This document shows positions 14,859 to 30,132 of a stretch of DNA of 64,000 nt, in pieces. Origin of the DNA: Streptomyces sp. ICBB 8177. GTDB taxonomy: Bacteria > Actinomycetota > Actinomycetes > Streptomycetales > Streptomycetaceae. Made by a program: the position numbers and the translations under genes. The number at the start of each line of letters is the position of its first letter. Position 1 is the first letter of the stretch. The notes below the pieces were generated by a model. That model searched no databases. It was given only the letters and a program-made list of their open reading frames with translations, and had not been told where the DNA came from. The stretch lies in contig NZ_NSKH01000018.1 in the NCBI RefSeq assembly GCF_003144095.1, positions 2,385,541-2,449,540 of the forward strand, given 5' to 3'.

Positions 14859-14959
14859 GGGGTTCCTGTCAATCAGGCCGGTGAGGTGATAGAGGGAATC
14901 CTAGGGGTGAGGACGGCGTGTCATCGAGTCAATCCCCGTTACATCTGGAGAATGTGCGC

Positions 14960-17900
14960 TCAATCGAGTGGAGCCGCATCGGAACGCTTGCCACTCGAAC
15001 GCGTGCTTCCGGCGCCCGCCCCCGCCTTCACGCCACCACCGGTCTCCCGGCGCTCTCCTGACTTCTTGCCACCCGCGCCGCCCGGAGCCTCGAACGACTC
15101 CAGCGCCTCCAACACGTCCTGGACCCGGGAGATTTCGGCGTTGATGTCCTCCCGGCGCCGCTTGAGCACGTCGAGTTCGCGGCGGCCCTCGTCGACGATC
15201 CGCTGCGCCTCGGCACGGGCCTCGGCCACCACCCGCTCGGCGGTCCTGGCCGCCTCGGCCTTCTTCTGCTCGGCCTCCTTGATGAGACCCTCGGCCTTCT
15301 TCACCGCCGCGATGCGGACCTTGCTCGCCTCCGACGACGCGGCGGACGCGGTCTCGCGCGCCGCCCGCTCGGCGTCGGCCACCAGCTCGCGGGCCTTGGC
15401 CTCGGCCTCCTCCAACTGCTCGGTGGCGGCGGCGACCAGCTTGTCGCAGCGCTCCCCGGCCGACTTCATCGCCTCGGAGGACTCCTTGCGGGCCCGCTCG
15501 TGCAGTTCCTCGACCTCGCTCTCCACCCGGGTGCGCAGCTCCTCGGCCCGCTCCCTTATCGACGTGGCGTCACCGCGGGCCTCGGCCAGCAGCGTGTCGG
15601 CGTCGGAACGGGACTGCTCCACCAGCGTGTTGGCCCGCGCGGTGGCCTCGGCCACCAGCCGCTCCGCCTCGGCCCGGGCGGCACCGACCATCTCGTCCGC
15701 GCGCTCCTCGGCCGCCGCGGCGGTGCGCAGCGCCTCGTCCCGCGCCTCGGTGGTGAGCCGCTCGGCCTCGGTGGCCGCCTTGCCGATCAGCTCGTCGGCC
15801 TGCTCGGCGGCCTCGGACCGCTTGCGGTTGGCGGTCTCGCGTGCCTCGTCGACGGTGCGCTCGGACTCCGCCTTCGCCGCCGCGAGCAGCCGCTCGGCCT
15901 CCGCCTTCGCGTTCTCCTCCTGCTCCACCGCCGCCGTGCGCGCCCGCTCGGCCTCGATGGTCAGCCGCTCGGCGTCCCGGGCGGCCCTGGCCACCCGTTC
16001 GTCGGCCTCCCGGCCGACCTTCTCCGCCTCGGCGACCGCGCCGGAGATCAGCTCGTCCGCCTGCTGGGCGGCCTCCGCGCGCTTGCGGTTGGCGTCCTCG
16101 CGGGCCTCGTCGCGCAGCCGGTCGGCGTCCGCGATGGCGTCCGCCACGGTCCGCTCGGCCAGCGCCTTCGCCAGCTCCGACTCCTCGTTGGCCTCGCGCC
16201 GGATGCGCACCGCGTCGGCGCCCGCCCGCTCACGCTCGGCGCCCGCGTCGGCGTGCAGCTTGTCGGCCTCCTCGCGGGCCGACGCCAGGACCTGCTGCGC
16301 GGCGTGCTCGGCGGCCGACTTCAGGCCGGCGATCTCCTCCTCGGCCTGCTCGTGCAACCCCGCCACCGCGTCGCGCACCTGCTGGGCGGTCTGCTCGGCG
16401 GCGGACACCAGCTCGGCGGCGCGCTGCTCGGCCTCGGCGACCAGCCGCTCCGCCTCGGCGCCCGCGTCCTCGACCCGCTTGCGCGCGGAGGCGAGCAACT
16501 CCTCGCTCTCCTCGCGGGCCTGACCGCGTTCCTGCTCGGCCGCGCGGCGGGCGTCGGCGAGCAGTTCCTCGGCCTCCCGGCGGCGCCTGGCGGCCTCCTC
16601 ACCGGCCGCCGACAGCGCCTCCGCGGCCTCGGCGGCGGTCCGCTCGGCGGCGGCCTGCGCCTCGGTGCGCAGCCGGTCGGCGGTCTCCCGGGCCTCGGTG
16701 CGCAGCCGTTCGGCCTCGGTGGCCGCCTCGGTGCGCAGCCGCACCGCGACCGCCTCGCCCTCGGCGCGGGACGCCGACGCGTCGGACGCGGCCTCGGACC
16801 GCAGCCGGTCCGCCTCCTCCTCCGCCTCAGCGCGCAGGGTGCGGGCCCGCTCGGCGGCCTCGGTGCGCAGCCGCTCGGCCTCCTGGGCGGCCTCCTTGCG
16901 CAGCCGGTCCGCCTCCGCGGTGCCGGCGCGCAGTGTCTCGTCGGCGTCGGTCAGCCGCCGGGCCACCTCGGCGCGCTGCCGCTCCAGCTCCTCGGCGGCC
17001 TCCTCAGCCAGTCGCGCCGCCGCCTCCTCGGCGTCGGCGCGCACCTGCCGGGCGGCGTCCTGGGCGGTGTCCTTGAGCCGGCCGGCGGCCTGTTCGGCCT
17101 CGGTGCGCAGCTGCTCGGCCTCGGCCCTGGCCCGCTCCAGCGCCTCCTCGGCCTGCTTGCGCAGGGCGGCGGCCCGCTCGGAGGCCTCGCCCCGCACCCG
17201 CTCGGACTCCGCGGCGGCGCCCTGCCGCACCTCCTCGGCGTCGGAACGCGCCTTGGTCAGCAGCTCCTCCGCGGTGCTGGCCGCCTCCTCGATCTGCTGG
17301 AGCGCCTCGCGCCGGGCCTCGCCGCGGATCCGCTCACCCTCGGCGACGGCCTCGGCCCGCAGCTGCTCGGCCTCGCCGCGCAGCCTGCGCGCCTCCTCCT
17401 GCAGCTCGACGGTCCTGGCCCGGTACTCCTTGGTGTCGTCCTTCGCCGCGCCCTTGAGCTGCTCGGCGGCCTCCTCGGCCTGGGCGCTCAGCCGGTCCGC
17501 CTCGGCCTGCGCCTCGCTGCGGATGCGCTCGGCCTCCTCGGCCGCCGCCTTCCTGGTGGCCTCGGCGTCCTGCGACGCCTTGGCGAGCACCTCCTCCGCG
17601 CTGCGCGCCGCCTTCGCCAGCTGCGCCGCCGCGTCCTCGGCGGCCTGGCTGCGGGCCGACTCCTGGGCCTCGGCGATCAGCCGCTCGGCCTCGGCCCGCG
17701 CGTCGTCCCGCTGCTGCTCGGCCTCGGCCCTGATCGCCTCGGCCTCCTTGGTGGCCTCGCCGACCAGCCGGGCGATCTCGGCCCGCGCGGTGCTGGTGCG
17801 CTGCTCGACGGAGGTCTCCGCCTCCGTCAGCCGGGTCGCCGCGGTCTCCTCCGCCTCGGCGCGCAGCCGCTCGGCCTCGGCGCGGGCCTCGCGCAGCGCG

Positions 17901-18730
17901 CTCTCCGCCTCGGCCATGGCCCGCTCGGCGGCCCGGGTCAGCTCGGCGGCCTCCCGGCGCGCCTCCTGCGACTCGGTGCGCGCGCCGGTGCGCAGCGACT
18001 CGGCGTGGTCGGTGGCCTCCTGGGCCTGGGTGGAGGCGGCGGTCAGCAGCCGCTCGGCGTCGGCGCGGGCGCGGCGCAGGATCGCCTCGGCCTCGGCGCG
18101 GGCCTCGGTGGCGGCCGACTCCAGCCGCTCGCGGGCCTGTTCGGCGACCCGGGCGGCCTCGGCGCGGGCGCTGCTCAGCGCGCTCTCCGCCTCGGCGCGC
18201 GACTCCTCCATCAGGCGGCGGGCCTGCGCCTCGGTGCGGGACCTCAACTGCTCGGCCCACGCGACGTTCTCGTTGACGTGGTTCTCGACGGTGGCGCGGC
18301 GCTCGGCCAGCTCCTCGTCCAGCCTGCGGCGGCGGGCGACCGCCTCGGCGTGCCACTCGGACTCCAGCTGCGACTGGCGCTCGGCCTGCTCCTGGAGCAT
18401 GCGCTGGGTGTTGGCCCGGGCCTCGCGCAGCTCGCGCTCGGCGTCGGCGCGCAGCTGGTCGGCCTGGATCTGCGCGTTGCGCAGGAGCTGCTCGGCCTGG
18501 TGGCTGATGTTGTCGTAGGCCCGCGGCTGGGCGAGCTGGCGGCGCGCCTCGTGCAGCTTGGCGCGCAGCACCTCGACCTGGTAGCCGAGATCGTCTGCGT
18601 GGTCGACGGCCTTGTCCCGCTCGGTCCGCAGCCGCTCCATCTCGGCCTCGAAACGAGAGAGCTGGTCGTCAGCCTCGTAGCGGTCGTAGCCCCGCACTCC
18701 GCGGTCCCATCCGTCTCCTGGACTGCTCAC
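14960..18730 (-). CDS. scy: Polarised growth scaffold protein Scy
   Basis: Scy assembles at hyphal tips with DivIVA and FilP and sets tip number and polarity. This copy has 1256 residues. The N-terminal RGYDRYEADDQLSRFEAEMERLRTERD segment resembles the DivIVA head. Nearly the whole rest is uninterrupted coiled coil rich in AEAERLRAEAE-type units with the drifting 11-residue phase described for Scy. The last 50 residues (Gly/Lys/Ser-rich) are disordered. I place the start at GTG 18730. GTG 18697 (VRGYDRYE) is an in-frame alternative that removes 11 residues. A good promoter is at 18758-18786. Confidence 0.94.
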   Translation of the reverse strand: MSSPGDGWDRGVRGYDRYEADDQLSRFEAEMERLRTERDKAVDHADDLGYQVEVLRAKLHEARRQLAQPRAYDNISHQAEQLLRNAQIQADQLRADAERELREARANTQRMLQEQAERQSQLESEWHAEAVARRRRLDEELAERRATVENHVNENVAWAEQLRSRTEAQARRLMEESRAEAESALSSARAEAARVAEQARERLESAATEARAEAEAILRRARADAERLLTAASTQAQEATDHAESLRTGARTESQEARREAAELTRAAERAMAEAESALREARAEAERLRAEAEETAATRLTEAETSVEQRTSTARAEIARLVGEATKEAEAIRAEAEQQRDDARAEAERLIAEAQESARSQAAEDAAAQLAKAARSAEEVLAKASQDAEATRKAAAEEAERIRSEAQAEADRLSAQAEEAAEQLKGAAKDDTKEYRARTVELQEEARRLRGEAEQLRAEAVAEGERIRGEARREALQQIEEAASTAEELLTKARSDAEEVRQGAAAESERVRGEASERAAALRKQAEEALERARAEAEQLRTEAEQAAGRLKDTAQDAARQVRADAEEAAARLAEEAAEELERQRAEVARRLTDADETLRAGTAEADRLRKEAAQEAERLRTEAAERARTLRAEAEEEADRLRSEAASDASASRAEGEAVAVRLRTEAATEAERLRTEARETADRLRTEAQAAAERTAAEAAEALSAAGEEAARRRREAEELLADARRAAEQERGQAREESEELLASARKRVEDAGAEAERLVAEAEQRAAELVSAAEQTAQQVRDAVAGLHEQAEEEIAGLKSAAEHAAQQVLASAREEADKLHADAGAERERAGADAVRIRREANEESELAKALAERTVADAIADADRLRDEAREDANRKRAEAAQQADELISGAVAEAEKVGREADERVARAARDAERLTIEAERARTAAVEQEENAKAEAERLLAAAKAESERTVDEARETANRKRSEAAEQADELIGKAATEAERLTTEARDEALRTAAAAEERADEMVGAARAEAERLVAEATARANTLVEQSRSDADTLLAEARGDATSIRERAEELRTRVESEVEELHERARKESSEAMKSAGERCDKLVAAATEQLEEAEAKARELVADAERAARETASAASSEASKVRIAAVKKAEGLIKEAEQKKAEAARTAERVVAEARAEAQRIVDEGRRELDVLKRRREDINAEISRVQDVLEALESFEAPGGAGGKKSGERRETGGGVKAGAGAGSTRSSGKRSDAAPLD

Positions 18731-18757
18731 CCGCCAACCGGGTGAGTCTCTCCGGTG

Positions 18758-18786
18758 AACATAGCCATTCAGGAGAATGGTGTCAG
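18758..18786 (-). promoter_or_regulatory. scy promoter with inverted repeat filling the spacer
   Basis: On the minus strand, -35 CTGACA (18786-18781) and -10 TATGTT (18763-18758) are 17 nt apart. The spacer contains the perfect inverted repeat CCATTC-TCCT-GAATGG (18780-18765), placed where a repressor or an activator of the MerR type could act. Confidence 0.6.
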
Positions 18787-18852
18787 ATTCTCACCGCGTC
18801 CGGGCCGTCCCCCAGCCCCGAGGGACACAGTACCGGGGCCGGGGCCCGCGGG

Positions 18853-19281
18853 TCAGTGCTCTTGGGCGGCGGTCACCAGCTCGGTGAGGACTCCGTGGCA
18901 GTCCTTGGGGTGCAGGAAGGTGATGCGCGACCCCATCGAGCCGGTGCGCGGCTGCTCGTAGAGCACCCGTACGCCCTTGTCGCGGATGGCGGCGGAGTCG
19001 GCGTCGACGTCGGCGGTGCCGAAGGCGATGTGGTGCACGCCCTCGCCGTTCTTGGCCAGCCACTTGCCGACCGCGGAGTCCTCGCGGGTCGGCTCCAGCA
19101 GCTGGAGGTAGGAGGCGCCGCCGTCGGAGGTCTCGTTGATCTTGAGCATGGCCTCCCGCACGCCCTGCTCCTCGTTGACCTCGGTGTGGAACACCTCGAA
19201 GCCGTAGGTGGCACGGTAGAACTCGACAGTGGAGTCCAGGTCGAAACAGGCGATCCCGATGTGGTCGATGCGCGTCAGCAT
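18853..19281 (-). CDS. mce: Methylmalonyl-CoA epimerase
   Basis: The epimerase interconverts the 2R and 2S forms of methylmalonyl-CoA, and in relatives also ethylmalonyl-CoA. It links propionyl-CoA carboxylase to the B12 mutase. The 142-residue protein is two tandem VOC modules. The metal ligands expected by alignment with the Propionibacterium enzyme are His7, Gln60, His84 and Glu134; all are present with matching spacing. ATG 19281 gives the usual MLTRIDHIGIA start, although no strong ribosome site is visible. It is divergent from the thiolase gene. Confidence 0.92.
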   Translation of the reverse strand: MLTRIDHIGIACFDLDSTVEFYRATYGFEVFHTEVNEEQGVREAMLKINETSDGGASYLQLLEPTREDSAVGKWLAKNGEGVHHIAFGTADVDADSAAIRDKGVRVLYEQPRTGSMGSRITFLHPKDCHGVLTELVTAAQEH

Positions 19282-19344
19282 GGAACCAGTGCACCGCCGA
19301 CACGCGTGGTCACGCAACGTGCGCGCCGTCACACCCTCGGGCCG

Positions 19345-19374
19345 GTGACCGGCGGCGGTACCCGTCAGTACATT
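19345..19374 (+). promoter_or_regulatory. Candidate thiolase promoter
   Basis: -35 GTGACC (19345-19350) and -10 TACATT (19369-19374) are 18 nt apart. The predicted start at about 19381 falls inside the operator-like repeat at 19375-19392. Confidence 0.5.
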
Positions 19375-19392
19375 GGCCTTAACCCTCGTTAA
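19375..19392 (-). promoter_or_regulatory. Operator-like motif shared with dehydrogenase promoter
   Basis: The minus strand reads TTAACGAGGGTTAAGGCC with the perfect inverted repeat TTAAC-N4-GTTAA (19379-19392). It matches 15 of 18 positions of 498-515. Placement over the presumed transcription start suggests repression. Confidence 0.6.
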
Positions 19393-19417
19393 CTCCCTTA
19401 CGCAAAGGGGCCGCGCC

Positions 19418-20617
19418 ATGACCAGCCAGGCACGCACGTCCGTGATCGTCGCAGGTGCCCGTACGCCGATGGGCCGCCTGCTCGGCAGTCTGCGCACCTT
19501 CTCCGGCGCCGACCTCGGCGGGATCGCCATCAAGGCCGCTCTGGACCGGGCCGGAATCGGCGGCGACCAGGTGCAGTACGTGATCATGGGCCAGGTCCTC
19601 CAGGCCGGCGCGGGCCAGATCCCGGCCCGCCAGGCGGCCGTCAAGGCGGGCATCCCGATGTCGGTGCCGGCCCTGACCGTCAACAAGGTCTGCCTGTCCG
19701 GCCTCGACGCCATCGCGTTGGCCGACCAGCTCATCCGGGCCGGAGAGTTCGACGTCGTCGTCGCGGGCGGCCAGGAGTCGATGACCAACGCGCCGCACCT
19801 GCTGCCGAAGTCCCGCGAGGGCCACAAGTACGGCGCCATCGAGATGCTCGACGCGATGGCGCACGACGGCCTCACCGACGCGTTCGAGAACATCGCGATG
19901 GGCGAGTCCACCGAGAAGCACAACACCCGCCTGGGCATCCAGCGTGCCGACCAGGACGAGATCGCCGCGCTGTCCCACCAGCGGGCCGCCGCCGCGCAGA
20001 AGAACGGCCTGTTCGAGGCGGAGATCACGCCGGTGGAGATCCCGCAGCGCAAGGGCGAGCCGGTGGTCTTCAGCAAGGACGAGGGCATCCGCCCGGAGAC
20101 CACCGCCGAGTCGCTCGGCAAGCTGCGCCCGGCGTTCGCCAAGGACGGCACGATCACCGCCGGCACCTCCTCGCAGATCTCCGACGGCGCCGCCGCCGTG
20201 GTCGTGATGAGCAGGGCGAAGGCGGAGGAGCTCGGCCTGGAGTGGATCGCGGAGATCGGCGCGCACGGCAACGTGGCGGGCCCCGACAACTCCCTCCAGT
20301 CCCAGCCGTCCAACGCCATCCGGCACGCCCTGCGCAAGGAGGGCCTGGCCGTCGGCGACCTCGACCTGATCGAGATCAACGAGGCGTTCGCCGCGGTCGC
20401 CGTCCAGTCGATGAAGGACCTCGGCGTGACACCCGAAAAGGTGAACGTCAACGGCGGCGCGATCGCCCTGGGCCACCCCATCGGCATGTCGGGCGCCCGT
20501 ATCGTCCTGCACCTGGCGCTGGAACTGCGGCGCCGGGGCGGCGGCGTGGGCGCGGCGGCGCTGTGCGGCGGTGGGGGCCAGGGCGACGCGCTGATCGTCC
20601 GGGTACCGCGCGCCTGA
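19418..20617 (+). CDS. Acetyl-CoA C-acetyltransferase (thiolase)
   Basis: This 399-residue enzyme condenses or cleaves acetoacetyl-CoA and supplies the substrate of the dehydrogenase at 548. The nucleophile Cys92 is in NKVCLSGLD. The remaining active-site blocks are [25 protein letters not shown] with the general-base His, and the second Cys in [13 protein letters not shown] 19418 follows an AAAGGGG ribosome site. It is divergent from mce and followed by a strong hairpin, so it is probably monocistronic. Confidence 0.94.
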
Positions 20618-20625
20618 TCACGGAC

Positions 20626-20667
20626 CCGGCGCGGCCGGACGGCCATCGAGCCGTCCGGCCGCGCCGG
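20626..20667. terminator. Terminator hairpin behind thiolase gene
   Basis: A perfect 18-bp stem (20626-20643 with 20650-20667) with a 6-nt loop lies 8 nt behind the thiolase stop. It separates that gene from meaB. Confidence 0.8.
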
Positions 20668-20709
20668 TACCGGCGGGCCCGGGCAGGAAGACCTTAGGTG
20701 AGGAGCACA

Positions 20710-21672
20710 GTGGACGTATCGACCCTCGTCGCGCAGGCAAGGGAGGGCAGGCCGCGTGCCGTGGCCCGGCTCATCAGCCTCGTCGAAGGCGCCTCCCCGC
20801 AGCTGCGCGAGGTCATGTCCACCCTCGCCCCGCTCACCGGCAACGCCTACGTGGTCGGCCTGACCGGCTCGCCGGGCGTCGGCAAGTCCACCACGACCTC
20901 CGCCCTGGTCACCGCTTACCGCAAGCGCGGCAAGCGGGTCGGCGTGCTGGCGGTGGACCCCTCCTCGCCGTTCTCCGGCGGCGCGCTGCTGGGCGACCGG
21001 GTGCGGATGAGCGAGCACGCCTCCGACCCCGGCGTCTACATCCGCTCCATGGCGACCCGCGGTCACCTCGGCGGGCTGGCGTGGGCGGCGCCGCAGGCGA
21101 TCCGGGTGCTGGACGCGGCCGGGTGCGAGGTGATCCTCGTCGAGACGGTCGGCGTCGGGCAGTCCGAGGTGGAGATCGCGGCGCAGGCCGACACCAGCGT
21201 GGTGCTGCTCGCCCCGGGCATGGGCGACGGCATCCAGGCCGCCAAGGCGGGCATCCTGGAGATCGGCGATGTCTACGTGGTCAACAAGGCCGACCGGGAC
21301 GGCGCCGACGCCACCGCCCGCGAGCTCAACCACATGCTGGGCCTGGGCGAGGCGCGCGGCCCGGGCGACTGGCGGCCGCCGATCGTCAAGACGGTCGCCG
21401 CCCGCGCGGAGGGCGTCGACGAGGTGGTCGAGGCGCTGGAGAAGCACCGCGCCTGGATGGAGGAGCACGGCGTGCTCACCGCCCGCAGGCGGCGCCGCGC
21501 GGCCCAGGAGGTCGAGAACATCGCGCTGACCGCCCTGCGCGCCCGCATCGGGGACCTGCACGGCGACCGCCGGCTCGACGCCCTGGCCGACGGCGTGCTC
21601 GCGGGCGCCCTGGACCCGTACACGGCCGCCGACGAACTCGTCGCGGGCCTGACGGCCCAGGACGAGGACTGA
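20710..21672 (+). CDS. meaB: Methylmalonyl-CoA mutase-associated GTPase MeaB
   Basis: MeaB is a G3E GTPase that gates loading of adenosylcobalamin onto acyl-CoA mutases and protects them from inactivation; IcmA at 27193 is its likely client here. The 320-residue protein has the P-loop GSPGVGKST at residues 53-61, VDPSSPFSGGALLGDR (magnesium and switch region), ETVGVGQSE and the guanine motif NKAD. The C-terminal dimerisation arm is present. GTG 20710 has AGGTGAGGAG just upstream, which decides against the in-frame GTG at 20698. Confidence 0.93.
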   Translation: MDVSTLVAQAREGRPRAVARLISLVEGASPQLREVMSTLAPLTGNAYVVGLTGSPGVGKSTTTSALVTAYRKRGKRVGVLAVDPSSPFSGGALLGDRVRMSEHASDPGVYIRSMATRGHLGGLAWAAPQAIRVLDAAGCEVILVETVGVGQSEVEIAAQADTSVVLLAPGMGDGIQAAKAGILEIGDVYVVNKADRDGADATARELNHMLGLGEARGPGDWRPPIVKTVAARAEGVDEVVEALEKHRAWMEEHGVLTARRRRRAAQEVENIALTALRARIGDLHGDRRLDALADGVLAGALDPYTAADELVAGLTAQDED

Positions 21673-21774
21673 GCCGGAAAGCCCGGGAAGCGGCCCGGGC
21701 CGGGTCGCCCAGGCCGCGGCGGCGCGTCAGCCCGTCGGCCGCGCCGCGGGCCGGCCCTTCGGCCGCACCGCGCG

Positions 21775-22251
21775 TCAGACCCTCGGCCGCACCGACCGCA
21801 GGCGCTTGGCGACCGGCGTCAACGCCCTTTGCAGGGACTCCAGTTCGTCCCGGGTGAGCAGGTCGATGAAGTACTCCCGCACCGACGCCACGTGATGCGG
21901 CGCCACCTTCGTCATCGTCTCCCAGCCGTGGTCGGTCAGGACCGCGAACAGGCCGCGCCGGTCGGACTCGCAGTTCTCCCGCCGCACCAGCCCGGCGTTC
22001 TCCATCCGGGTGATCTGATGGGAGAGGCGGCTCTTGGACTGGAGCGTGGACCGCGCCAGGTCGCTCATCCGCATCTGCCGGTCCTCGGCCTCCGAGAGGT
22101 TCACCAGGATCTCGTAGTCGTTGTAGGTCAGGCCGAATGGCTGAAGGTCCCGTTCCAGCTGGTAGGTGAGCAGCCGGGACACTTCCAGATGGGTACGCCA
22201 GGCGCGCTGTTCGTCGTCGTCGAGCCAGCGCGGCGCCTTCTCGGTCTCCAT
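21775..22251 (-). CDS. MarR-family transcriptional regulator
   Basis: The 158-residue winged-helix protein has the family order: dimer helix RAWRTHLEVSRLLTYQLERDL, FGLTYNDYEILVNLSEAEDRQMRMSDLARSTLQSKSRLSHQITRMENAGLVRRENCESDRRG, then a dimer helix. The DR-RG wing tip is intact. The ligand is unknown. It lies 104 bp downstream of the AIM24 operon in the same direction. Upstream of ATG 22251 an imperfect 10+10 inverted repeat (22268-22295) could be its own operator. Extending the frame to 22359 would run through that site, so the ATG is preferred. Confidence 0.88.
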   Translation of the reverse strand: METEKAPRWLDDDEQRAWRTHLEVSRLLTYQLERDLQPFGLTYNDYEILVNLSEAEDRQMRMSDLARSTLQSKSRLSHQITRMENAGLVRRENCESDRRGLFAVLTDHGWETMTKVAPHHVASVREYFIDLLTRDELESLQRALTPVAKRLRSVRPRV

Positions 22252-22265
22252 GACGTCAAGTCTGT

Positions 22266-22295
22266 CCAATTGGTTGAAACTCGGATCAATCGAAT
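22266..22295. promoter_or_regulatory. Candidate MarR operator
   Basis: TTGA-N8-TCAA (22274-22289) sits in a longer imperfect 10-bp arm pair (22268-22295, 7 of 10 matching). It overlaps the perfect palindrome CCAATTGG (22266-22273). It is 15-44 nt before the MarR start codon. Confidence 0.45.
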
Positions 22296-22337
22296 GAGTT
22301 CGACCGCGCGAGACCGGCCGACAATTGTTCGACATTA

Positions 22338-22370
22338 CACTCCGGAGGTCACCCCTCACAATCCGGAGTG
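22338..22370 (-). terminator. Hairpin over the stop of the AIM24 operon
   Basis: CACTCCGGA (22338-22346) and TCCGGAGTG (22362-22370) pair perfectly around 15 nt that contain the stop codon of the last AIM24 gene. Confidence 0.5.
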
Positions 22371-23078
22371 GGGTTGTCCGGCCGGAACTCCGGGCTGCCG
22401 CGGCACCACACCGGTGTCGATGCCGTCCATCAGCCGCTCACTGGACTGGAGCAGTACCTGTCCGGCACCGACGAATTCGAATTGGTGCTCCTCGCCCGAG
22501 ACGCCGCCGAGTCCGGTGAGCATCCGCACGCCGCCCAGGACGCCGCGCAGATAGGCGTGGTCGTAGTGGTGGCAGGGCGAGGGGCAGTCCGCCCAGCCCA
22601 CCAGGGCCTGCGGATCGACCCGGACCGGTGGTTCCACGAAGACCACCGCGCCGTTGGAGGCGGCCACGAACTTTCCCGTTCCGATGAGGGTGAGAAAACC
22701 CGGGATGATGGACTGTTTCAGCGACAGCCCCGGCTGGAAAGCCAGCAGATTGCCGGACCTGATGGTGAGATTGCCGTCCGACAGGTCGTAGGAGTTGATG
22801 TCGAAGGCCCGGTCGGCGAGGAGCATCTTGCCCTGGCCCTGCGCCACCACCCAGTCCGCGGCGTGCAGCGGGGAATGGAAATTGACCGAGATCAGCCGGT
22901 CCAGCGGGCCGTGGCCCAGACCGTGAAAGTCGATCCGGCCGTAGTAGGCGACCATTTTCCCGCGTTGCAGGAACCACTCGCCGTTCAGGTCCACGCTGAA
23001 CGCGTAAGGATTGACGTTGTCGTCGCTCGGCAGCGTGTACGGGTCGAAGACCACCGGCCCGCCCGTGGCAGCGTTCAC
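22356..23078 (-). CDS. AIM24-family protein (third of three)
   Basis: This 240-residue member of the AIM24 family (beta-rich, TRAP-like fold, role unknown in bacteria) is the most divergent of the three. It keeps the family pattern NGEWFLQRGKMVAYYGRIDF, LADRAFDINSYDLSDGNLTIRSGNLLAFQPGL and GEEHQFEFVGAGQVLLQSSE. It carries an insert with CPSPCHHYDHAYLRG, where two Cys and two His could bind a metal. GTG 23078 overlaps the stop of the gene before it by four bases (GTGA), so translation is coupled. No signal peptide or membrane span is visible. Confidence 0.85.
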   Translation of the reverse strand: MNAATGGPVVFDPYTLPSDDNVNPYAFSVDLNGEWFLQRGKMVAYYGRIDFHGLGHGPLDRLISVNFHSPLHAADWVVAQGQGKMLLADRAFDINSYDLSDGNLTIRSGNLLAFQPGLSLKQSIIPGFLTLIGTGKFVAASNGAVVFVEPPVRVDPQALVGWADCPSPCHHYDHAYLRGVLGGVRMLTGLGGVSGEEHQFEFVGAGQVLLQSSERLMDGIDTGVVPRQPGVPAGQPHSGL

Positions 23079-23725
23079 AGTTTCTCCTCCGACGCCTGCA
23101 CGTACACCGCACCCTCACCCGTCAGCTCCAGCTGGAAGGTCTCGCCCGAACCGCGGCCGACCAGCTCACGCCAACCGACCGCGGCGACGAGCCTGTTGCG
23201 CACCTCACCGCGGTGCGCCACGTAGGCCTGCGGATCGACGTGCACCGCGGCGCCCGGACGGATCGGCAGCTCGAACACGCCGCCGTGTGCCAGTACGGCC
23301 ACCGCGCCCGATCCGCTCAACGTGGTGGTGAACAGGCCCTGACCGGTGACCTGGCCGCGGACCACCCCCATCACACCGCCCTGGGAGCCCAGGAACATCG
23401 TGCCCTGCCGCAGCCCGCCCTCGAAGGCCAGCAGCCGGTCGGACTCCACGTGGAGCGTCTCGCCGGTCAGCTCGACCACGTGCGCGTGGTGGCCGCCGTG
23501 CCCGAACATCACGCTGCCCGAGCCCTCCACGGTCATCAGCGGCGTGGCCTCGTTCGCCACCCGGCGGCCGATCATCGAGCCGATGCCGCCCTGGCCGCCG
23601 GTGATGCGCGGGGTGAACGTGACCTGCCCGGTGTACGCGAGCATCGCGCCGCGCTGGCTGAACAGCGGCCGCCCGGGCACCACTTCGGCCCGCACCATCT
23701 TCGACGTCAGCTGGGTGAAGGTCAT
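23075..23725 (-). CDS. AIM24-family protein (second of three)
   Basis: The 216-residue beta-rich protein has the internal pattern PLFSQRGAMLAYTGQVTFTPR, HVVELTGETLHVESDRLLAFEGGLRQGT, GLFTTTLSGSGAVAVLAHG and GETFQLELTGEGAVYVQASE. The last segment recurs in all three family members here. One Gly-rich segment, GGQGGIGSMIGRRV, may form a flexible loop. One base separates it from the preceding gene and it overlaps the next by four. The three proteins may form a hetero-oligomer, as an inference from coupling and equal size. Confidence 0.87.
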   Translation of the reverse strand: MTFTQLTSKMVRAEVVPGRPLFSQRGAMLAYTGQVTFTPRITGGQGGIGSMIGRRVANEATPLMTVEGSGSVMFGHGGHHAHVVELTGETLHVESDRLLAFEGGLRQGTMFLGSQGGVMGVVRGQVTGQGLFTTTLSGSGAVAVLAHGGVFELPIRPGAAVHVDPQAYVAHRGEVRNRLVAAVGWRELVGRGSGETFQLELTGEGAVYVQASEEKL

Positions 23726-23726
23726 C

Positions 23727-24365
23727 TCAGACCTGCCCCGCGATCGTGGTGCGCTCGCTGGGCTGGACGTACACCAGTCCGTCGCCCTCGAAACGGATCT
23801 GGAACGACTCGCCGGACGCCTCGCCCGCGAAGGTGCGCCAGTTGACGCCGGACTGGAAGCGCTGCCGCAGGTTCCCGGTGTGCGCCACGTACGCGCCCGG
23901 GTCGACCTGGAGGGGGAAGTCGGGGCTGACCCGCAGCACGACCGCGGGGCCGTCCGAGACCAGCGCCGCCTGCCCCGTGCCCTCCACGGTCGTGGTGAAC
24001 AGCCCGTGCCCCTCGCTCACCCCGCGCAGCCCGGTGAACGTCGTCCCGGTACGCAACGTGGCCTCCGTGCACAGCAGGTTGCTCGCCTCGACGTACAGCT
24101 TCTCGCCGGACAAACGCACCAGGTTGACCTCGCTCGCCCGGTCCGCGAACCAGCAGGTGCCGTGCCCCCTGACCTCCATCACCGTCATGCTCTCGCCGGT
24201 GATCCGCCGGGTCACGATGCCGCGCAGGCCGTCGCCGCCGCCGGTCAGCCGCTTGAAGGTCATCTTGCCGTCGTACGCGACCATCGCGCCGTTCTTCGCC
24301 TTCACCGCGTCGCCGGCCAGGTCGACGGCGAGCACCCTGCTGCCCTGGAGCCGGAAGAGCGCCAT
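23727..24365 (-). CDS. AIM24-family protein (first of three)
   Basis: The 212-residue protein contains AKNGAMVAYDGKMTFKRLTGGGDGLRGIVTRRITGE, LVRLSGEKLYVEASNLLCTEATLRTGT, GLFTTTVEGTGQAALVSDG and GESFQIRFEGDGLVYVQPSE. It is clearly paralogous to the second protein. The ATG follows the TAG stop of the DUF2127 gene with no gap. The protein appears soluble; a role near the membrane is suggested only by its membrane-protein neighbour. Confidence 0.87.
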   Translation of the reverse strand: MALFRLQGSRVLAVDLAGDAVKAKNGAMVAYDGKMTFKRLTGGGDGLRGIVTRRITGESMTVMEVRGHGTCWFADRASEVNLVRLSGEKLYVEASNLLCTEATLRTGTTFTGLRGVSEGHGLFTTTVEGTGQAALVSDGPAVVLRVSPDFPLQVDPGAYVAHTGNLRQRFQSGVNWRTFAGEASGESFQIRFEGDGLVYVQPSERTTIAGQV

Positions 24366-25148
24366 CTACGCCATGCTCCCGTCCCGCGCCGGCGTGCCCG
24401 CCGCGCGCTCGACCTCCAGCAGTGAGTCGCCGCGCCGCTCCTCCTCGAAGGCCCGCGCGCCGCCGCGCAGCCCGAACAGCCGCTTTGCCAGCAGGATGTA
24501 GACCACGGCGAGCGCGTTGAGCGCCAGCGTGGCGATCTTCAGGCCGCTGACCTTCTCGGTCAGCTCGTATATCTCCAGCGGCAGGAACGCGGCGGTGGCC
24601 ACCACCGTCAGGTACTCCGCCCAGCGCTTGGCGAACCACAGCCCGACGCCCTCGACCAGTTCGATCAGCGCGTACGCCAACAGCGCGGCGGCGACCGCGA
24701 GCAGCGTGGAGCGCTTGTAGGTGAACGTCTTGCGGATGGTGTCGACTATGGGGGAGTGGTTGACGTCGTAGTGGAAGTGCAGGGCGACCGGCCGGAAGAC
24801 CGTCAGGTCCTGCTCGAACAGCCGCTGCACCGCGTTCTGCGAGTTGCTGAACTTCCACACCGCCACCGCGACCAGCACGATGAAGACCCCGCGCACCACC
24901 CGCTCGAACGCCAGCAGCCGCAGGATCAGCAGGTCCCGCAGCGCCCGGCCGCGCGGCACCTCGGGCGCCTGGCCTGCCGGTCCCGCGCCGTGCGGCTCGC
25001 CCAGCACGAAGTCACCGCAGCGCAGGCAGCGCCAGGCGTCACCGAGCGCGGTCGACGCGTGCAGCCGCTCGCGCAGCCCCGCCTCGCTGGGCGCGTACGT
25101 CGTGTGACCGCGCCGGGCGCAGGTGCGGCGGTTCCAGTCGAGCTTCAT
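24366..25148 (-). CDS. DUF2127-type membrane protein with N-terminal zinc-ribbon-like Cys pairs
   Basis: The 260-residue protein heads the AIM24 operon. Residues 1-50 hold C-x3-H (CARRGH) and C-x2-C (CLRCGDF), which could bind zinc. About four membrane spans follow: VVRGVFIVLVAVAVW, the TLLAVAAALLAYALIELVEGVGLW region, YLTVVATAAFLPLEIYEL and IATLALNALAVVYILLA. The sequence pattern matches my recollection of DUF2127, whose function is unknown. Its stop abuts the ATG of the first AIM24 gene. It is divergent from the DUF3817 gene at 25369; the gap holds the palindrome AGTGATCACT (25204-25213). Confidence 0.82.
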   Translation of the reverse strand: MKLDWNRRTCARRGHTTYAPSEAGLRERLHASTALGDAWRCLRCGDFVLGEPHGAGPAGQAPEVPRGRALRDLLILRLLAFERVVRGVFIVLVAVAVWKFSNSQNAVQRLFEQDLTVFRPVALHFHYDVNHSPIVDTIRKTFTYKRSTLLAVAAALLAYALIELVEGVGLWFAKRWAEYLTVVATAAFLPLEIYELTEKVSGLKIATLALNALAVVYILLAKRLFGLRGGARAFEEERRGDSLLEVERAAGTPARDGSMA

Positions 25149-25368
25149 CGGTCCCCCGGTGGGCTGTCGGCCCGCGCCCCGGCCGTCGCCGCGGTCGCGT
25201 GCCAGTGATCACTTACAGCGACGATGCTAATGGTGACCACCGACACCCCTACCCCGTTCCGCAGCCCTGGGACCGGACTGCGACAATGGGGACGCTTGTG
25301 CACCGCTTCACAAAGCCGGGCCCGTGCGGGACCGGACCGTTCGTGATCCATCGGATATGAGGACCCTC

Positions 25369-25716
25369 GTGGACGTGAAGACCGCCGCCGCCCTGCGCCG
25401 CCTGCGCATCATCTCCATCGCCGAGGCCATCTCGTTCCTGGCCCTGCTGATCTTCGGCTCGCTGCTCAGCCGCATCAGCAGCATCAACCTGCTCATGCCG
25501 CTCGGCCTGCTGCACGGCGCGCTGGTCGTCGTCTACTTGGTCTTCCTGGCCGACGTGTGGAACAAGGCCAAGTGGCCGATGAGCCGCGTCTGGCTCTTCC
25601 TGCTCTGGGCGGTGCTGCCGACCGGCGGCTTCTTCGGTGACCGGATGATCCGGCGCGAGGAGTCGGCCGGCGTGATCGCCGCCAGGGCCCGCAAGGAAGG
25701 CGTGGTCAACGCGTGA
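25369..25716 (+). CDS. DUF3817 small membrane protein (copy 1)
   Basis: This 115-residue protein has three predicted spans: the [19 protein letters not shown] region, [24 protein letters not shown] and [17 protein letters not shown]. The HG..VVYLVF..D segment and the final R(M/R)xRRE are shared with the second copy at 26726. GTG 25369 with GAGGA 5 nt upstream gives the usual [13 protein letters not shown] start; ATG 25357 overlaps that ribosome site and is less likely. The function is unknown. Its stop overlaps the next start by four bases. Confidence 0.82.
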
Positions 25717-26006
25717 TCGTCGCCTTCTCCGTCACTCCGCTCGGCGTCGGTGAGGACGTCGGGGAGTACGTGGCCGACGCCGTGCGGGTGGTCCGCGAGT
25801 CCGGCCTGCCGCACCGCACCGACGCGATGTTCACCTCGGTCGAGGGGGAGTGGGACGAGGTGATGGACGTCGTGCGGCGGGCGGTCGCCGCCGTCGAGGC
25901 CCGCGCCCCGCGCGTCTCCCTCGTGCTGAAGGCGGACATCCGCCCGGGCGTCACCGACGGCCTCACCGCCAAGGTGGACACCGTCGAACGCCACCTGGCG
26001 GGCTGA
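25713..26006 (+). CDS. MTH1187/YkoF-type thiamine-binding protein (DUF77)
   Basis: This 97-residue protein has the ferredoxin-like MTH1187 fold pattern: [52 protein letters not shown] and [12 protein letters not shown]. Relatives bind thiamine or hydroxymethylpyrimidine in some organisms; the ligand here is not shown by sequence. GTG 25713 overlaps the stop of the DUF3817 gene (GTGA), so the two are cotranslated. Confidence 0.85.
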
Positions 26007-26108
26007 CCGCCCGCGTCCGCCGCGGCCGTCCCGCTGCCCGCCCGCGTCCGTGCCGCAGACCCGTTGTTCGAAGAGCGAGACGAACCCTCCCGGCATGTGA
26101 CCGCCCGG

Positions 26109-26114
26109 TAGTCT
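26109..26114 (+). promoter_or_regulatory. -10 hexamer TAGTCT of MarR gene, leaderless layout
   Basis: TAGTCT lies 7 nt before GTG 26122 with no Shine-Dalgarno sequence between them. Confidence 0.5.
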
Positions 26115-26121
26115 CGGTGCC

Positions 26122-26631
26122 GTGCCGAAGCCGCTCAGCCTCCCCTTCGACCCGATCGCCCGCGCCGACGAACTGTGGCAGCGCCGCTGGGGCGCGGTGC
26201 CCGCGATGGGCGCCATCACCTCGATCATGCGCGCCCAGCAGATCCTGCTGGGTCGGGTGGACGCCGTGGTCAAGCCGTACGGGCTGACCTTCGCGCGGTA
26301 CGAGGCGCTGGTCCTGCTGACCTTCAGCAAGGCCGGTGAGCTGCCGATGTCCAAGATCGGCGAGCGGCTGATGGTCCACCCGACCTCGGTCACCAACACC
26401 GTCGACCGGCTGGTGCGCTCCGGACTGGTCGACAAGCGGCCCAACCCCAACGACGGCCGCGGCACGCTCGCGTCCATCACCGACAAGGGCCGCGAGGTGG
26501 TCGAGGCGGCCACCAGGGACCTGATGGCGATCGACTTCGGCCTGAGCGCGTACGACGCGGACGAGTGCCAGGAGATCTTCGCGCTGCTGCGCCCGCTGCG
26601 GATAGCCGCCGGCGACTTCACGCAGGAGTGA
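26122..26631 (+). CDS. MarR-family transcriptional regulator (second)
   Basis: The 169-residue protein has the dimer helices ITSIMRAQQILLGRVDAVVKPYGL and the winged helix ARYEALVLLTFSKAGELPMSKIGERLMVHPTSVTNTVDRLVRSGLVDKRPNPNDGRGTLASITDKG. The N-D-GRG wing replaces the more common D-R-R. The position between DUF3817 genes and before icmA makes icmA one possible target, by inference. GTG 26122 is supported by the leaderless-type promoter. No Cys suited to redox sensing is in the helix-turn-helix. Confidence 0.88.
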   Translation: MPKPLSLPFDPIARADELWQRRWGAVPAMGAITSIMRAQQILLGRVDAVVKPYGLTFARYEALVLLTFSKAGELPMSKIGERLMVHPTSVTNTVDRLVRSGLVDKRPNPNDGRGTLASITDKGREVVEAATRDLMAIDFGLSAYDADECQEIFALLRPLRIAAGDFTQE

Positions 26632-26711
26632 CCCCGGCACCCTCCGCGAGGGGTGGTCCGGCCCGTTACCACAAGGGTGGGGGCGGCGCGGAAGGCGCCA
26701 GGAACGCCGCG

Positions 26712-26717
26712 TACGCT
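26712..26717 (+). promoter_or_regulatory. -10 hexamer TACGCT, leaderless layout
   Basis: TACGCT is followed by 8 nt and ATG 26726. No ribosome site is visible. Confidence 0.45.
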
Positions 26718-26725
26718 CGTGCGTC

Positions 26726-27064
26726 ATGAAGTCTTCTGTCCTGACCCGGTACCGCGTGATGGCATATGTCACGGGTGTCCTGTTGATCCTGCTCACGCTC
26801 GCCTGCGTCGCCAAGTACGCGATGGACGTCAACGCCGCGTACGTCTGGGTCGCCATCCTCGGCACCGCCCACGGCTGGCTCTTCGTGATCTACCTGGTCT
26901 TCGCCTTCGACATGGGCAGCAAGGCCAAGATGCCGTTCATCAAGCTCCTGTGGATCCTGCTGGCGGGCACCATCCCCACGGCCGCGTTCTTCGTCGAGCG
27001 CCGGGTCACCCGGGAGCTGGAACCGCTGGTCAGCAAGGCGGCGCCGGAGCCGGTCGGCGTCTGA
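26726..27064 (+). CDS. DUF3817 small membrane protein (copy 2)
   Basis: The 112-residue protein has three predicted spans (VMAYVTGVLLILLTLACVAKYA, VAILGTAHGWLFVIYLVFAFDMG and LLWILLAGTIPTAAFFV) and a cytoplasmic RRVTRELE. It shares HGwlfVIYLVFafDmgsKAKmP with copy 1 ([22 protein letters not shown]), so the two arose by duplication. The function is unknown. Two copies flanking a MarR gene and standing before icmA are a stable arrangement in related genomes, as I recall. Confidence 0.82.
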   Translation: MKSSVLTRYRVMAYVTGVLLILLTLACVAKYAMDVNAAYVWVAILGTAHGWLFVIYLVFAFDMGSKAKMPFIKLLWILLAGTIPTAAFFVERRVTRELEPLVSKAAPEPVGV

Positions 27065-27160
27065 GCCGCCGCCGCGGGCGCCCCGAGCCGGATCCAGCCG
27101 GAACCGAGGCGCCCCGGGTCATCCTCGGTCCGCCGCGCCGCCGTGACCTCTGCCATCGAC

Positions 27161-27184
27161 ATTTACTAGGACGTCCAAGTAAAT
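27161..27184. promoter_or_regulatory. 24-bp near-perfect palindrome before icmA
   Basis: The two halves ATTTACTAGGAC and GTCCAAGTAAAT pair at 11 of 12 positions. The site ends 8 nt before ATG 27193 and would overlap the transcription start region, so an operator for a dimeric regulator is likely. The AT-rich arms contrast with the GC-rich surroundings. Confidence 0.7.
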
Positions 27185-27192
27185 TGGGTGGC

Positions 27193-28893
<1,701 letters not shown>

Positions 28894-28909
28894 CCCCTTC
28901 GAGCACGGG

Positions 28910-28957
28910 GAACGCGGACCCGGCGACCGCCAAGTCGCGACCACCGGGCCCGCGTTC
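28910..28957 (+). terminator. Terminator hairpin behind icmA
   Basis: GAACGCGGACCCGG (28910-28923) pairs with CCGGGCCCGCGTTC (28944-28957) with one mismatch that can form a G-U pair. Confidence 0.7.
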
Positions 28958-29034
28958 GCGCTCCGGGAGGGGGCGAGAGCCGAAACGGCGGCCTACGCGT
29001 GGGTGAGAGAACGGACCTTTACGCAGGTGGGGGA

Positions 29035-29523
29035 ATGGGCTTCGTATTGTTCCGCCCTCCTTTGGGGCCGGAAGTAATCGCGATGGGCAGGCCCCCGTGG
29101 CGGGCGGTGTTCGTCCTTGTTCCGCTGGTGACGCCGGTGGTCCTGGCCTGTGTGCTGGCCTTGTCCGCCTCCGACGCGGAGTTGCGGATCGCCCTTGGCG
29201 TGCTCGTGGCTGTGCCCACGGGGATCTTCCAGCATTACCGCGTCTACCTGGACGAAGACCGGCTTGTCGTCAGACGGATGGTCCTGTGGCATGTGGTTCG
29301 GCTCTCGGAGCTGACTGTGGTGCGAGCACATCCAGGGCCCAGGAGCGGCCCTGTGGTTTGGCTTACCGACCGAGGGAAGAACCGTTGCACGATCGAGTTT
29401 CCACGGATCTCACTGCAACACCGCCGCCAGCTGGCCGCTGTCCTGCGGCAGTGTCTCGCCGAACAGGATGTCCGGTTGGAGGGGCCGGTAAAGAAGGTGC
29501 TCGGGAAGTACCGCTTGCCGTAA
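29035..29523 (+). CDS. Small membrane protein with PH-like cytoplasmic part, atypical codon use
   Basis: I do not recognise a named family. The 162-residue protein has two spans (AVFVLVPLVTPVVLACVLAL and LRIALGVLVAVPTGIF) and then a short beta-rich part, YRVYLDEDRLVVRRMVLWHVVRLSELTVV. That part is like the bacterial PH domains that follow paired spans. Third-position GC is visibly lower than in neighbours, with GTA, TTG, CCT, CTT and TGT codons, as in acquired or lineage-restricted genes. ATG 29035 has AGGTGGGGG next to it; GTG 28999 in frame is possible. It is convergent with the tetR gene 12 bp away. Confidence 0.6.
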   Translation: MGFVLFRPPLGPEVIAMGRPPWRAVFVLVPLVTPVVLACVLALSASDAELRIALGVLVAVPTGIFQHYRVYLDEDRLVVRRMVLWHVVRLSELTVVRAHPGPRSGPVVWLTDRGKNRCTIEFPRISLQHRRQLAAVLRQCLAEQDVRLEGPVKKVLGKYRLP

Positions 29524-29535
29524 CCCCGGATGCCG

Positions 29536-30132
29536 TCAGGCGGTGCCCGCGAGGCCGGTCAGGAGCAGGGCCGCCAGTGACGCGGCCCAGGCGGCGTCCA
29601 CCGGCTCGCCGCTGACCAGGACGCGGTGGACGACCGCGCCCGCGATGACGTCGAAGATCAGGTCGATCTCGGCCGACGGGTCGGCGCCGTCGTCGGGCGG
29701 CAGTTCGCCGCGGTCCTGGGCGTGCCGCCGGCCCGCGATCACCAGGTGCTTCTGGCGGTCCACGATCGCCTCGCGGATACGGCAGCGCAGCGCCTCGTCG
29801 CCGGTCGACTCGGCGACCACGGCCATCAGCGCCGTCTTGGTCTCCGGCCGCTCCAGCAGCCGCCCGAACTGGAGCACCACGCCCTCGATGTCGGCCCGCA
29901 GGCTGCCGCGGTCGGGCAGCCGCAGTTCGTCGAAGAGGGCCGCGACCGCGTCCACCACGAGTTCGTTCTTGTTGGCCCAGCGGCGGTAGAGCGTCGTCTT
30001 GGCGACGCCCGCGCGGGACGCCACGTCGCTCATGGTCAGACCGCCCCACCCCAGGTCGACCAGCGCCTGCCGGGTGGCCTCCAGGATCGCCTCGTCGGCC
30101 TGCTGGCTGCGAGGGCGTCCGGTCCTGGTCAC
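29536..30132 (-). CDS. TetR-family transcriptional regulator
   Basis: The 198-residue protein has the helix-turn-helix block ADEAILEATRQALVDLGWGGLTMSDVASRAGVAKTTLYRRWANKNELVVDAVAALF at its N terminus. A C-terminal ligand domain of the AcrR/TetR_C type follows. GTG 30132 follows a TAGGGT hexamer by 6 nt. The palindrome TACCG-TC-CGGTA (30143-30154) overlaps that hexamer and is a likely self-operator. It is divergent from the thioredoxin gene, which it may also control through the shared 274-bp region. Confidence 0.87.
   Translation of the reverse strand: MTRTGRPRSQQADEAILEATRQALVDLGWGGLTMSDVASRAGVAKTTLYRRWANKNELVVDAVAALFDELRLPDRGSLRADIEGVVLQFGRLLERPETKTALMAVVAESTGDEALRCRIREAIVDRQKHLVIAGRRHAQDRGELPPDDGADPSAEIDLIFDVIAGAVVHRVLVSGEPVDAAWAASLAALLLTGLAGTA

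What the first reader, a model, noticed from the sequence alone, without database searches (positions are those of the whole stretch)
22356..25148. Coupled operon of a DUF2127 membrane protein and three AIM24 paralogues
Gaps are 0, 1 and minus 4 bases, which implies fixed stoichiometry. Three similar beta-rich proteins with a polytopic partner bearing Cys pairs look like one complex of unknown function. The third copy carries a CPSPCHHYDH insert that could bind metal. This is the strongest candidate here for an undescribed envelope system.
Basis: partly seen in the sequence, partly recalled or inferred. Interest (0 to 1): 0.68.

Follow-up and report, generated by a model that had tools for sequence, protein, structure and literature searches.

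The report
Three-part stress complex beside redox switch
Three of the four genes are one ancient, always-together set of related proteins that in some bacteria belongs to the tellurite-type (Ter) stress system; in this family of soil bacteria the set lies beside a predicted redox-controlled DNA switch, and the fourth (membrane-protein) gene is mostly a neighbour by history.

Summary
The four ORFs and junctions (0, +1, -4) are real.

The AIM24 genes B, C, D are a unit: in order in 79 of 80 named loci from four phyla (the 80th, a fifth phylum, is cut at a contig end). Each position is its own clade, save one long-branched paralogue among B. In Rubrobacteraceae, Nocardia, Mycolicibacterium and Tsukamurella the triad sits in ter clusters, yet Ter genes are near it in only 2 of the 80. 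In 296 phylum genomes, 13 of 13 with D have TerD, 1 of 283 others.

In Streptomycetaceae the triad lies between an AbsC orthologue and a divergent promoter region with a Rex-type operator (25296-25313, one mismatch), present in 26 of 28 named loci.

Best reading: a co-translated three-subunit AIM24 complex tied to the Ter system, predicted to be NADH/NAD+-controlled. Complex, Rex binding and function are untested.

The parts
24366..25148 (-). DUF2127 membrane protein (gene A), N-terminal Cys/His cluster; not a conserved partner of the triad
   Evidence: distribution
23727..24365 (-). AIM24 subunit B
   Evidence: one branch 95/95 apart from a long-branch paralogue inside it; model matches 1yox Z 20.5
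23075..23725 (-). AIM24 subunit C
   Evidence: own clade 97/96
22356..23078 (-). AIM24 subunit D (GTG start overlapping the stop of C by 4 bases)
   Evidence: own clade 100/100
22557..22589 (-). insert DCPSPCHHYDH of D; loop conserved, Cys/His lineage-limited
25296..25313 (.). Rex-operator-like inverted repeat TTGTGCACCGCTTCACAA (one mismatch to TTGTGAANNNNTTCACAA) between the AIM24 operon and the divergent DUF3817 gene
   Evidence: consensus from PMC5355995, passages
21775..22251 (-). MarR-family gene directly downstream of D; orthologue of AbsC (PDB 3zmd, E 1.4e-74)
   Evidence: AbsC = SCO5405 from PMC3737563 passages
25357..25716 (+). divergent DUF3817 membrane protein sharing the operator region (start as called by my script)
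25713..26006 (+). thiamine-binding protein (TIGR00106) downstream of the divergent DUF3817

Best explanation
B, C and D are three anciently diverged, co-translated subunits of one AIM24 (TRAP-like beta-fold) hetero-oligomer that is tied to the TerD/TerC/StiP (Ter) stress response. In Streptomycetaceae the set stands at a housekeeping locus (methylmalonyl-CoA epimerase, thiolase, MeaB, methylmalonyl-CoA mutase), beside the AbsC-type MarR gene and, in part of the family, a DUF2127 gene, while TerD genes lie elsewhere in the genome. There it is read from a divergent promoter region that carries a Rex operator, so it is predicted to be repressed at low NADH/NAD+ and released when respiration is limited. 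The soluble beta-rich complex would then work at the inner face of the membrane as a scaffold or stabiliser under redox or membrane stress, together with TerD proteins. Shown here: co-inheritance, order and junctions of the three genes; Ter linkage in several lineages; genome co-occurrence with TerD in the samples; conservation of the operator. Inferred: physical complex, Rex binding, which of the two divergent operons the operator serves, and the membrane role.
For: Unity: B, C, D in order in 79 of 80 named loci (in L082 the B match is in two pieces, L057 is cut by the contig end) with tight junctions, taking the nearest possible start codon (B/C within -11..+30 bases in 78 of 83 loci, C/D within -4..+16 in 78 of 84). 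D is one clade 100/100, C 97/96, and the 26 B rows share a branch 95/95 with one long-branch paralogue. Ter linkage: TerD, StiP and PRTase_2, with C-C lyase or with HAD and TerC, beside the triad in L036-L039; TerD beside L057; 3 of 3 plasmid records with a D match at E 1e-20 or better. Co-occurrence: 13 of 13 D-bearing phylum genomes have TerD against 1 of 283 others; in the order 44 of 44 against 1 of 16. A TerD-AIM24 fusion protein exists in Streptomyces-like genomes. Fold: B model against 1yox Z 20.5 over 177 residues, 1pg6 Z 19.9. Operator: the only site with at most 2 mismatches in 64 kb, none in 100 shuffles; at most 2 mismatches in 26 of 28 named Streptomycetaceae loci and in 11 of 11 unnamed ones.
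Against: No Ter gene lies in the window. With the session's own models, Ter genes were found in the same stretch as the triad in only 2 of the 80 named loci (L055, L057); none in Actinomadura, Rhodococcus or Streptomyces loci, and several loci are only 5-8 kb long. The D/TerD table rests on few independent lineages: the 13 phylum genomes are one family (9), one genus of a second family (2) and one genus of another class (2). G035 and G330 have TerD without D. The operator is absent from triad loci outside Streptomycetaceae (best 4 or more mismatches) and from 2 of 28 inside (L102, L130); by the called starts it lies nearer to the DUF3817 gene (43 bases) than to gene A (147 bases). No structure of a complex was predicted. 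The model of D is poor beyond residue 143.
Confidence: 0.55

Rival explanations
1. One reading: DUF2127 and the three AIM24 proteins form one envelope complex of fixed stoichiometry.
For: Junctions 0, +1, -4. DUF2127 directly upstream of B also in the second genome of the genus and in 5 of 80 named loci, from Actinacidiphila (3), Streptacidiphilus (1) and S. acidipaludis (1), with 1-36 bases to the nearest possible start of B.
Against: 35 of 44 D-bearing order genomes lack DUF2127 and 13 of 22 DUF2127 genomes lack D. Of the other eight genomes with both, six have them 24-32 kb apart and two on different contigs (positions; the match in G054 holds a stop codon). No DUF2127 in the stretches L036-L039.
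Confidence: 0.1
2. A zinc locus: DUF2127 (Cys/His N-terminus), the AbsC-type regulator and the Cys/His insert of D together handle zinc, and the AIM24 proteins are the effector.
For: The downstream MarR protein is the AbsC orthologue; AbsC is described as a zinc-homeostasis regulator (PMC9739823, passages). DUF2127 keeps C41 and C44 in 7 of 7 aligned sequences. D has DCPSPCHHYDH in 11 of 11 Streptomycetaceae compared.
Against: The exact insert is in 17 of 39 D sequences and the second Cys is replaced in many. The MarR gene stands beside DUF2127 in another family of the order without the triad (L020, L046, L047). The SCO3205-type motif TTnAAnnnTCAA was found in 0 of 29 D-absC intergenic stretches and 0 of 29 regions upstream of the operon.
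Confidence: 0.15
3. The operator belongs to the divergent DUF3817/thiamine-binding operon only, and the triad is not under Rex control and works purely as a Ter component.
For: By the called starts 43 bases separate the operator from the DUF3817 gene and 147 from gene A.
Against: The operator is found with the triad and is absent from 4 of 4 DUF2127 loci examined in another family of the order, two of which (L046, L047) have a DUF3817 gene next to DUF2127. Counted from the operator's first base, the B match begins 77-82 bases away in 18 of the 22 Streptomyces loci that have the operator.
Confidence: 0.2

Closest known systems
AIM24 / DUF124 family (PF01987; solved members 1yox PA3696 and 1pg6 SpyM3_0169)
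   Same: All three proteins pass the Pfam cut-off; the B model has the same fold, Z 20.5 and 19.9.
   Different: Three distinct subunit types found together, D being a far diverged type with its own loop; the TIGR00266 cut-off is not reached by any.
Ter (tellurite-resistance-type) stress-response systems, TerD/TerC/StiP/PRTase
   Same: The same triad is inside such clusters in Rubrobacteraceae, Nocardia farcinica, Mycolicibacterium alvei and Tsukamurella. PMC5822837 (passages) cites Anantharaman, Iyer and Aravind 2012 for AIM24 genes next to TerD.
   Different: In the window the triad stands alone, with no ter gene nearby; TerD genes lie elsewhere in the genome.
Yeast mitochondrial Aim24
   Same: Same name-giving domain family; described as a TRAP-like protein firmly bound to the inner membrane and tied to respiratory function (PMC3975624, passages and title).
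   Different: MICOS partners in yeast; here three co-encoded AIM24 proteins and no MICOS known.
Rex regulon of Streptomyces
   Same: Operator matches the published consensus at 13 of 14 defined positions (PMC5355995, passages).
   Different: No AIM24 target is named in that paper (term search in its main text: 0); binding here is untested.

Membership tests
AIM24 / DUF124 (PF01987) | whole-protein score above the curated cut-off | tested here: met
   B 128.8, C 118.6, D 41.3 bits against 25.7
AIM24 / DUF124 (PF01987) | fold of the solved members | tested here: met
   B: 1yox Z 20.5, 1pg6 Z 19.9. D: 1pg6 first, E 6.5e-06, on a weak model. C not modelled
TIGR00266 | score above the NCBIfam cut-off 96.6 | tested here: not met
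   B 55.9, C 27.7, D no match
Ter system | TerD, TerC or StiP genes in the same cluster | tested here: not met
Ter system | orthologous genes are part of ter clusters elsewhere | tested here: met
   L036-L039, L055, L135-L137; but only 2 of 80 named loci show Ter genes in the stretch held
Ter system | role in tellurite or membrane stress | not testable with these tools
   needs mutants
Rex regulon | operator close to TTGTGAANNNNTTCACAA upstream of the gene | tested here: met
   one mismatch at 25296-25313
Rex regulon | binding by Rex and NADH-dependent release | not testable with these tools
   needs EMSA or ChIP; presence of a rex gene in this genome was not searched
Four-gene DUF2127-AIM24 complex (reader) | joint presence and adjacency of all four genes | tested here: not met
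   9 of 44 D-bearing order genomes have DUF2127, 1 adjacent; 5 of 80 named loci

The most novel reading that the evidence does not exclude
The AIM24 triad is a Rex-controlled, three-subunit bacterial counterpart of mitochondrial Aim24: a membrane-associated beta-fold scaffold, recruited from the Ter stress system, that adjusts the respiratory membrane of Streptomycetaceae when NADH rises.
Probability: 0.25. Interest if true: 0.72.

Novelty: new variant of a known kind. Interest (0 to 1): 0.52.

Why it matters
AIM24 proteins occur from bacteria to mitochondria; PMC5822837 (2018, passages) says that no role had been ascribed to the domain in prokaryotes. A strictly conserved three-gene set, its place in some Ter clusters, and a conserved Rex-type operator in laboratory-tractable actinomycetes give a concrete, testable setting: make the three proteins together, and measure the triad in rex mutants and under oxygen limitation. 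It also warns that tight gene spacing in one genome (DUF2127-B, 0 bases) need not mean a conserved complex.

Tried and rejected
DUF2127 as a fixed partner: rejected by distribution. Metal site as the general function of D: weakened, exact string in 17 of 39. AbsC-type operator (TTnAAnnnTCAA, taken from the SCO3205 paper): 0 of 29 intergenic and 0 of 29 upstream regions. Sigma-70-type promoters: none found; one terminator-like site, chance level. Rfam families: none reach the gathering score in 18000-30000. Sequence search of the PDB with B alone gave only designed trefoils, taken as chance; the profile of B found 1yox and 1pg6. DUF2127: no PDB match at E 1. VIA-align listed only 1yox and 1pg6 for B, a second look at Foldseek's own matches. 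The phage collection gave one weak match to D (2e-6), not followed. Literature: searches on DUF2127, on AIM24 with Streptomyces, on AIM24 or DUF124 with TerD, StiP or tellurite resistance, and on the phrase 'AIM24 family protein' listed no paper on an AIM24 triad, judging by titles and abstract beginnings; the 2012 Ter paper is not held, so I cannot say that the triad is unreported there. My first guess of S. coelicolor locus tags for the triad (recalled) was not borne out; the search led instead to SCO5405 = AbsC.

Counting cautions. Gene calls come from my own codon-usage caller, which missed genes (D in L007 and L014, recovered by tblastn) and failed on low-GC loci; one search repeats the count on six-frame ORFs. 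I fetched 4 of the 19 DUF2127 places listed for family f3, and triad regions from 10 of the 44 D-bearing order genomes. The 39 rows of the insert count were chosen by me from 84 loci plus the window. Fisher values computed are not quoted because the genomes are not independent.
Full report
1. The observation. The four minus-strand ORFs and their spacing are as described: DUF2127 (A) 24366-25148, AIM24 B 23727-24365, C 23075-23725, D 22356-23078, junctions 0, +1 and -4. Pfam assigns DUF2127 and three AIM24 proteins above the curated cut-offs. The window lies in a 6.3 Mb genome (G000) with four AIM24 genes in all and one DUF2127.

2. DUF2127 is not a fixed partner. The genus has two genomes in the collection and both have A-B-C-D. 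In a sample of 60 genomes of the order (the window's own included), D (profile A1, E at most 1e-40) is in 44, DUF2127 in 22, both in 9, D alone in 35, DUF2127 alone in 13, neither in 3. Only in G000 are they adjacent; of the other eight, six have them 24-32 kb apart and two on different contigs (positions; the DUF2127 match of G054 holds a stop codon). In another family of the order (f3), D is in 0 of 14 genomes and DUF2127 in 13 of 14. Of the 19 DUF2127 places listed for f3 I fetched four; in three (L020, L046, L047) DUF2127 stands beside a homologue (51-53% identity) of the same MarR gene, in two of them (L046, L047) next to the epimerase-thiolase-MeaB genes, with no AIM24 gene; the fourth (L045) stands elsewhere. 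Of 296 genomes of the phylum, 16 have DUF2127 above the cut-off and 13 have D (E below 1e-80), and two have both. The plainest history is a DUF2127-MarR pair that has the triad between its members in Streptomycetaceae, with DUF2127 later moved or lost in the larger genus; a loss of the triad in f3 would fit as well. DUF2127 is beside B in 5 of 80 named loci: three Actinacidiphila, one Streptacidiphilus and S. acidipaludis, so the A-B adjacency is wider than the window's genus but confined, in these samples, to part of the family.

3. B-C-D is a unit. A scan of species genomes with a D alignment gave 80 named loci, the best 80 of 538 confirmed. 79 have B, C and D in that order (in L082 B is in two pieces). 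The 80th, a Chloroflexaceae MAG contig (L057), starts inside C. The 79 come from Streptomyces, Actinacidiphila, Streptacidiphilus, Actinomadura and relatives, Rhodococcus, Frankiaceae, Rubrobacteraceae, Solirubrobacteraceae and others in Actinomycetota, and from single Deinococcales, Blastocatellia and Spirulina records (four phyla). Taking the nearest possible start codon, the B/C junction is within -11..+30 bases in 78 of 83 loci and C/D within -4..+16 in 78 of 84 (the 84 are the 80 plus L036-L039). In a tree of 94 AIM24 proteins D is one clade (27 rows, 100/100), C is one clade (26 rows, 97/96) and the 26 B rows share one branch (95/95) with a single very long-branched paralogue. Largely the same taxonomic groups recur inside each clade. 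So the three types are old and have been inherited together. Streptomyces-like genomes have a second set of three AIM24 genes whose first member is fused to a TerD domain; it falls outside the B, C and D clades.

4. Ter linkage. In four loci outside the order (L036-L039) the triad shares the stretch with TerD proteins, StiP and PRTase_2, together with a C-C lyase (L036, L037) or a HAD protein and TerC (L038, L039). All three plasmid records that match D at E 1e-20 or better (Nocardia farcinica, a 2.66 Mb record; Mycolicibacterium alvei; Tsukamurella tyrosinosolvens) have B-C-D with TerD, StiP, PRTase and C-C lyase; the latter two are annotated as AIM24, TerD, StiP and phosphoribosyltransferase. 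In the phylum sample, 13 of 13 D-bearing genomes have TerD and 1 of the 283 others does (G330); in the order sample 44 of 44 and 1 of 16 (G035). These are few independent lineages, so the counts should not be read as p-values. Against the reading: no Ter gene is in the window, and among the 80 named loci only L055 (the same contig as L038) and L057 show one in the stretch held; Actinomadura, Rhodococcus and Streptomyces loci show none. PMC5822837 (passages) reports, citing Anantharaman, Iyer and Aravind 2012, that AIM24 genes are often next to TerD; the AIM24-Ter link itself is therefore known.

5. The insert of D. DCPSPCHHYDH is in all 11 Streptomycetaceae first compared. Over 39 chosen D sequences the exact string is in 17; the frame GW-x-D-x-P-x-P-x4-D is in all 39. 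A metal site is possible where all Cys/His are present but cannot be the common function.

6. Fold. The B model (pLDDT 79.5) matches 1yox (Z 20.5, 177 residues, rmsd 2.4) and 1pg6 (Z 19.9); no other chain of the 991 aligned reached Z 2. The D model is good only to about residue 143; it also ranks 1pg6 and 1yox first. No hydrophobic stretch was found in B, C or D, three in DUF2127. Yeast Aim24 is described as TRAP-like, firmly bound to the inner membrane and in a complex of about 400 kDa (PMC3975624, passages).

7. Control region. Between gene A and the divergent DUF3817 gene lies TTGTGCACCGCTTCACAA (25296-25313). It is the only match with at most two mismatches to the Rex consensus TTGTGAANNNNTTCACAA in the window, with none in 100 shuffles; the consensus and a closely similar footprinted site at rex itself are in PMC5355995 (passages). 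At most two mismatches are found upstream of A or B in 26 of 28 named Streptomycetaceae loci and in 11 of 11 unnamed ones, where it is the only match with at most three mismatches in the stretch (some overlap with the named set). Outside the family the best is four or more mismatches. It is absent, at up to three mismatches, from the four f3 DUF2127 loci and from the five stretches of the larger genus around the moved DUF2127. So it goes with the triad, though it may serve the DUF3817 side, the triad, or both. That this genome has a rex gene was not searched.

8. The MarR gene after D is the AbsC orthologue (3zmd, E 1.4e-74; AbsC = SCO5405, PDB 3ZMD, PMC3737563 passages), described as a zinc-homeostasis and antibiotic regulator (PMC9739823 passages; PMC3737563). 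It follows D in 28 of 28 named Streptomycetaceae loci, in L132 at about 1.6 kb.

9. Verdict. What is supported is a three-gene AIM24 set with a Ter connection, placed in this family between AbsC and a Rex-type operator. Function remains inferred. It is a new variant of a known kind: AIM24 and its Ter link are known, while the orthologous triad, its separate placement and the operator were found here; I could not check whether the 2012 paper already describes the triad.

Noticed in passing
window 21775-22251: AbsC orthologue directly downstream of D; it follows the triad in 28 of 28 named Streptomycetaceae loci.
   Followed up: partly
window 25296-25313: Rex-operator-like site shared by two divergent operons, conserved through the family.
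   Followed up: yes
window 25357-27064: Two DUF3817 paralogues separated by a thiamine-binding protein and a second MarR gene, beside a methylmalonyl-CoA mutase-like gene (name of the last recalled from its sequence neighbourhood).
   Followed up: no
L025 5900-8951 and L021 8183-11248: A second AIM24 set of three in Streptomyces-like genomes whose first gene (tested in L025) fuses TerD, a proline-rich linker and AIM24; the two genomes of the window's genus have no such extra AIM24 genes.
   Followed up: partly
L039 9676-11036: In one genome (G187) D is duplicated in tandem: B-C-D-D.
   Followed up: no
window 13923-18697: A 311-aa DivIVA-like and a 1245-aa coiled-coil-like gene, by position and size like FilP and Scy of Streptomyces (names and likeness recalled, not tested).
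   Followed up: no
window 24366-25148: DUF2127 of this group carries an N-terminal C-x4-H ... CxxC cluster; C41 and C44 in 7 of 7 aligned.
   Followed up: no
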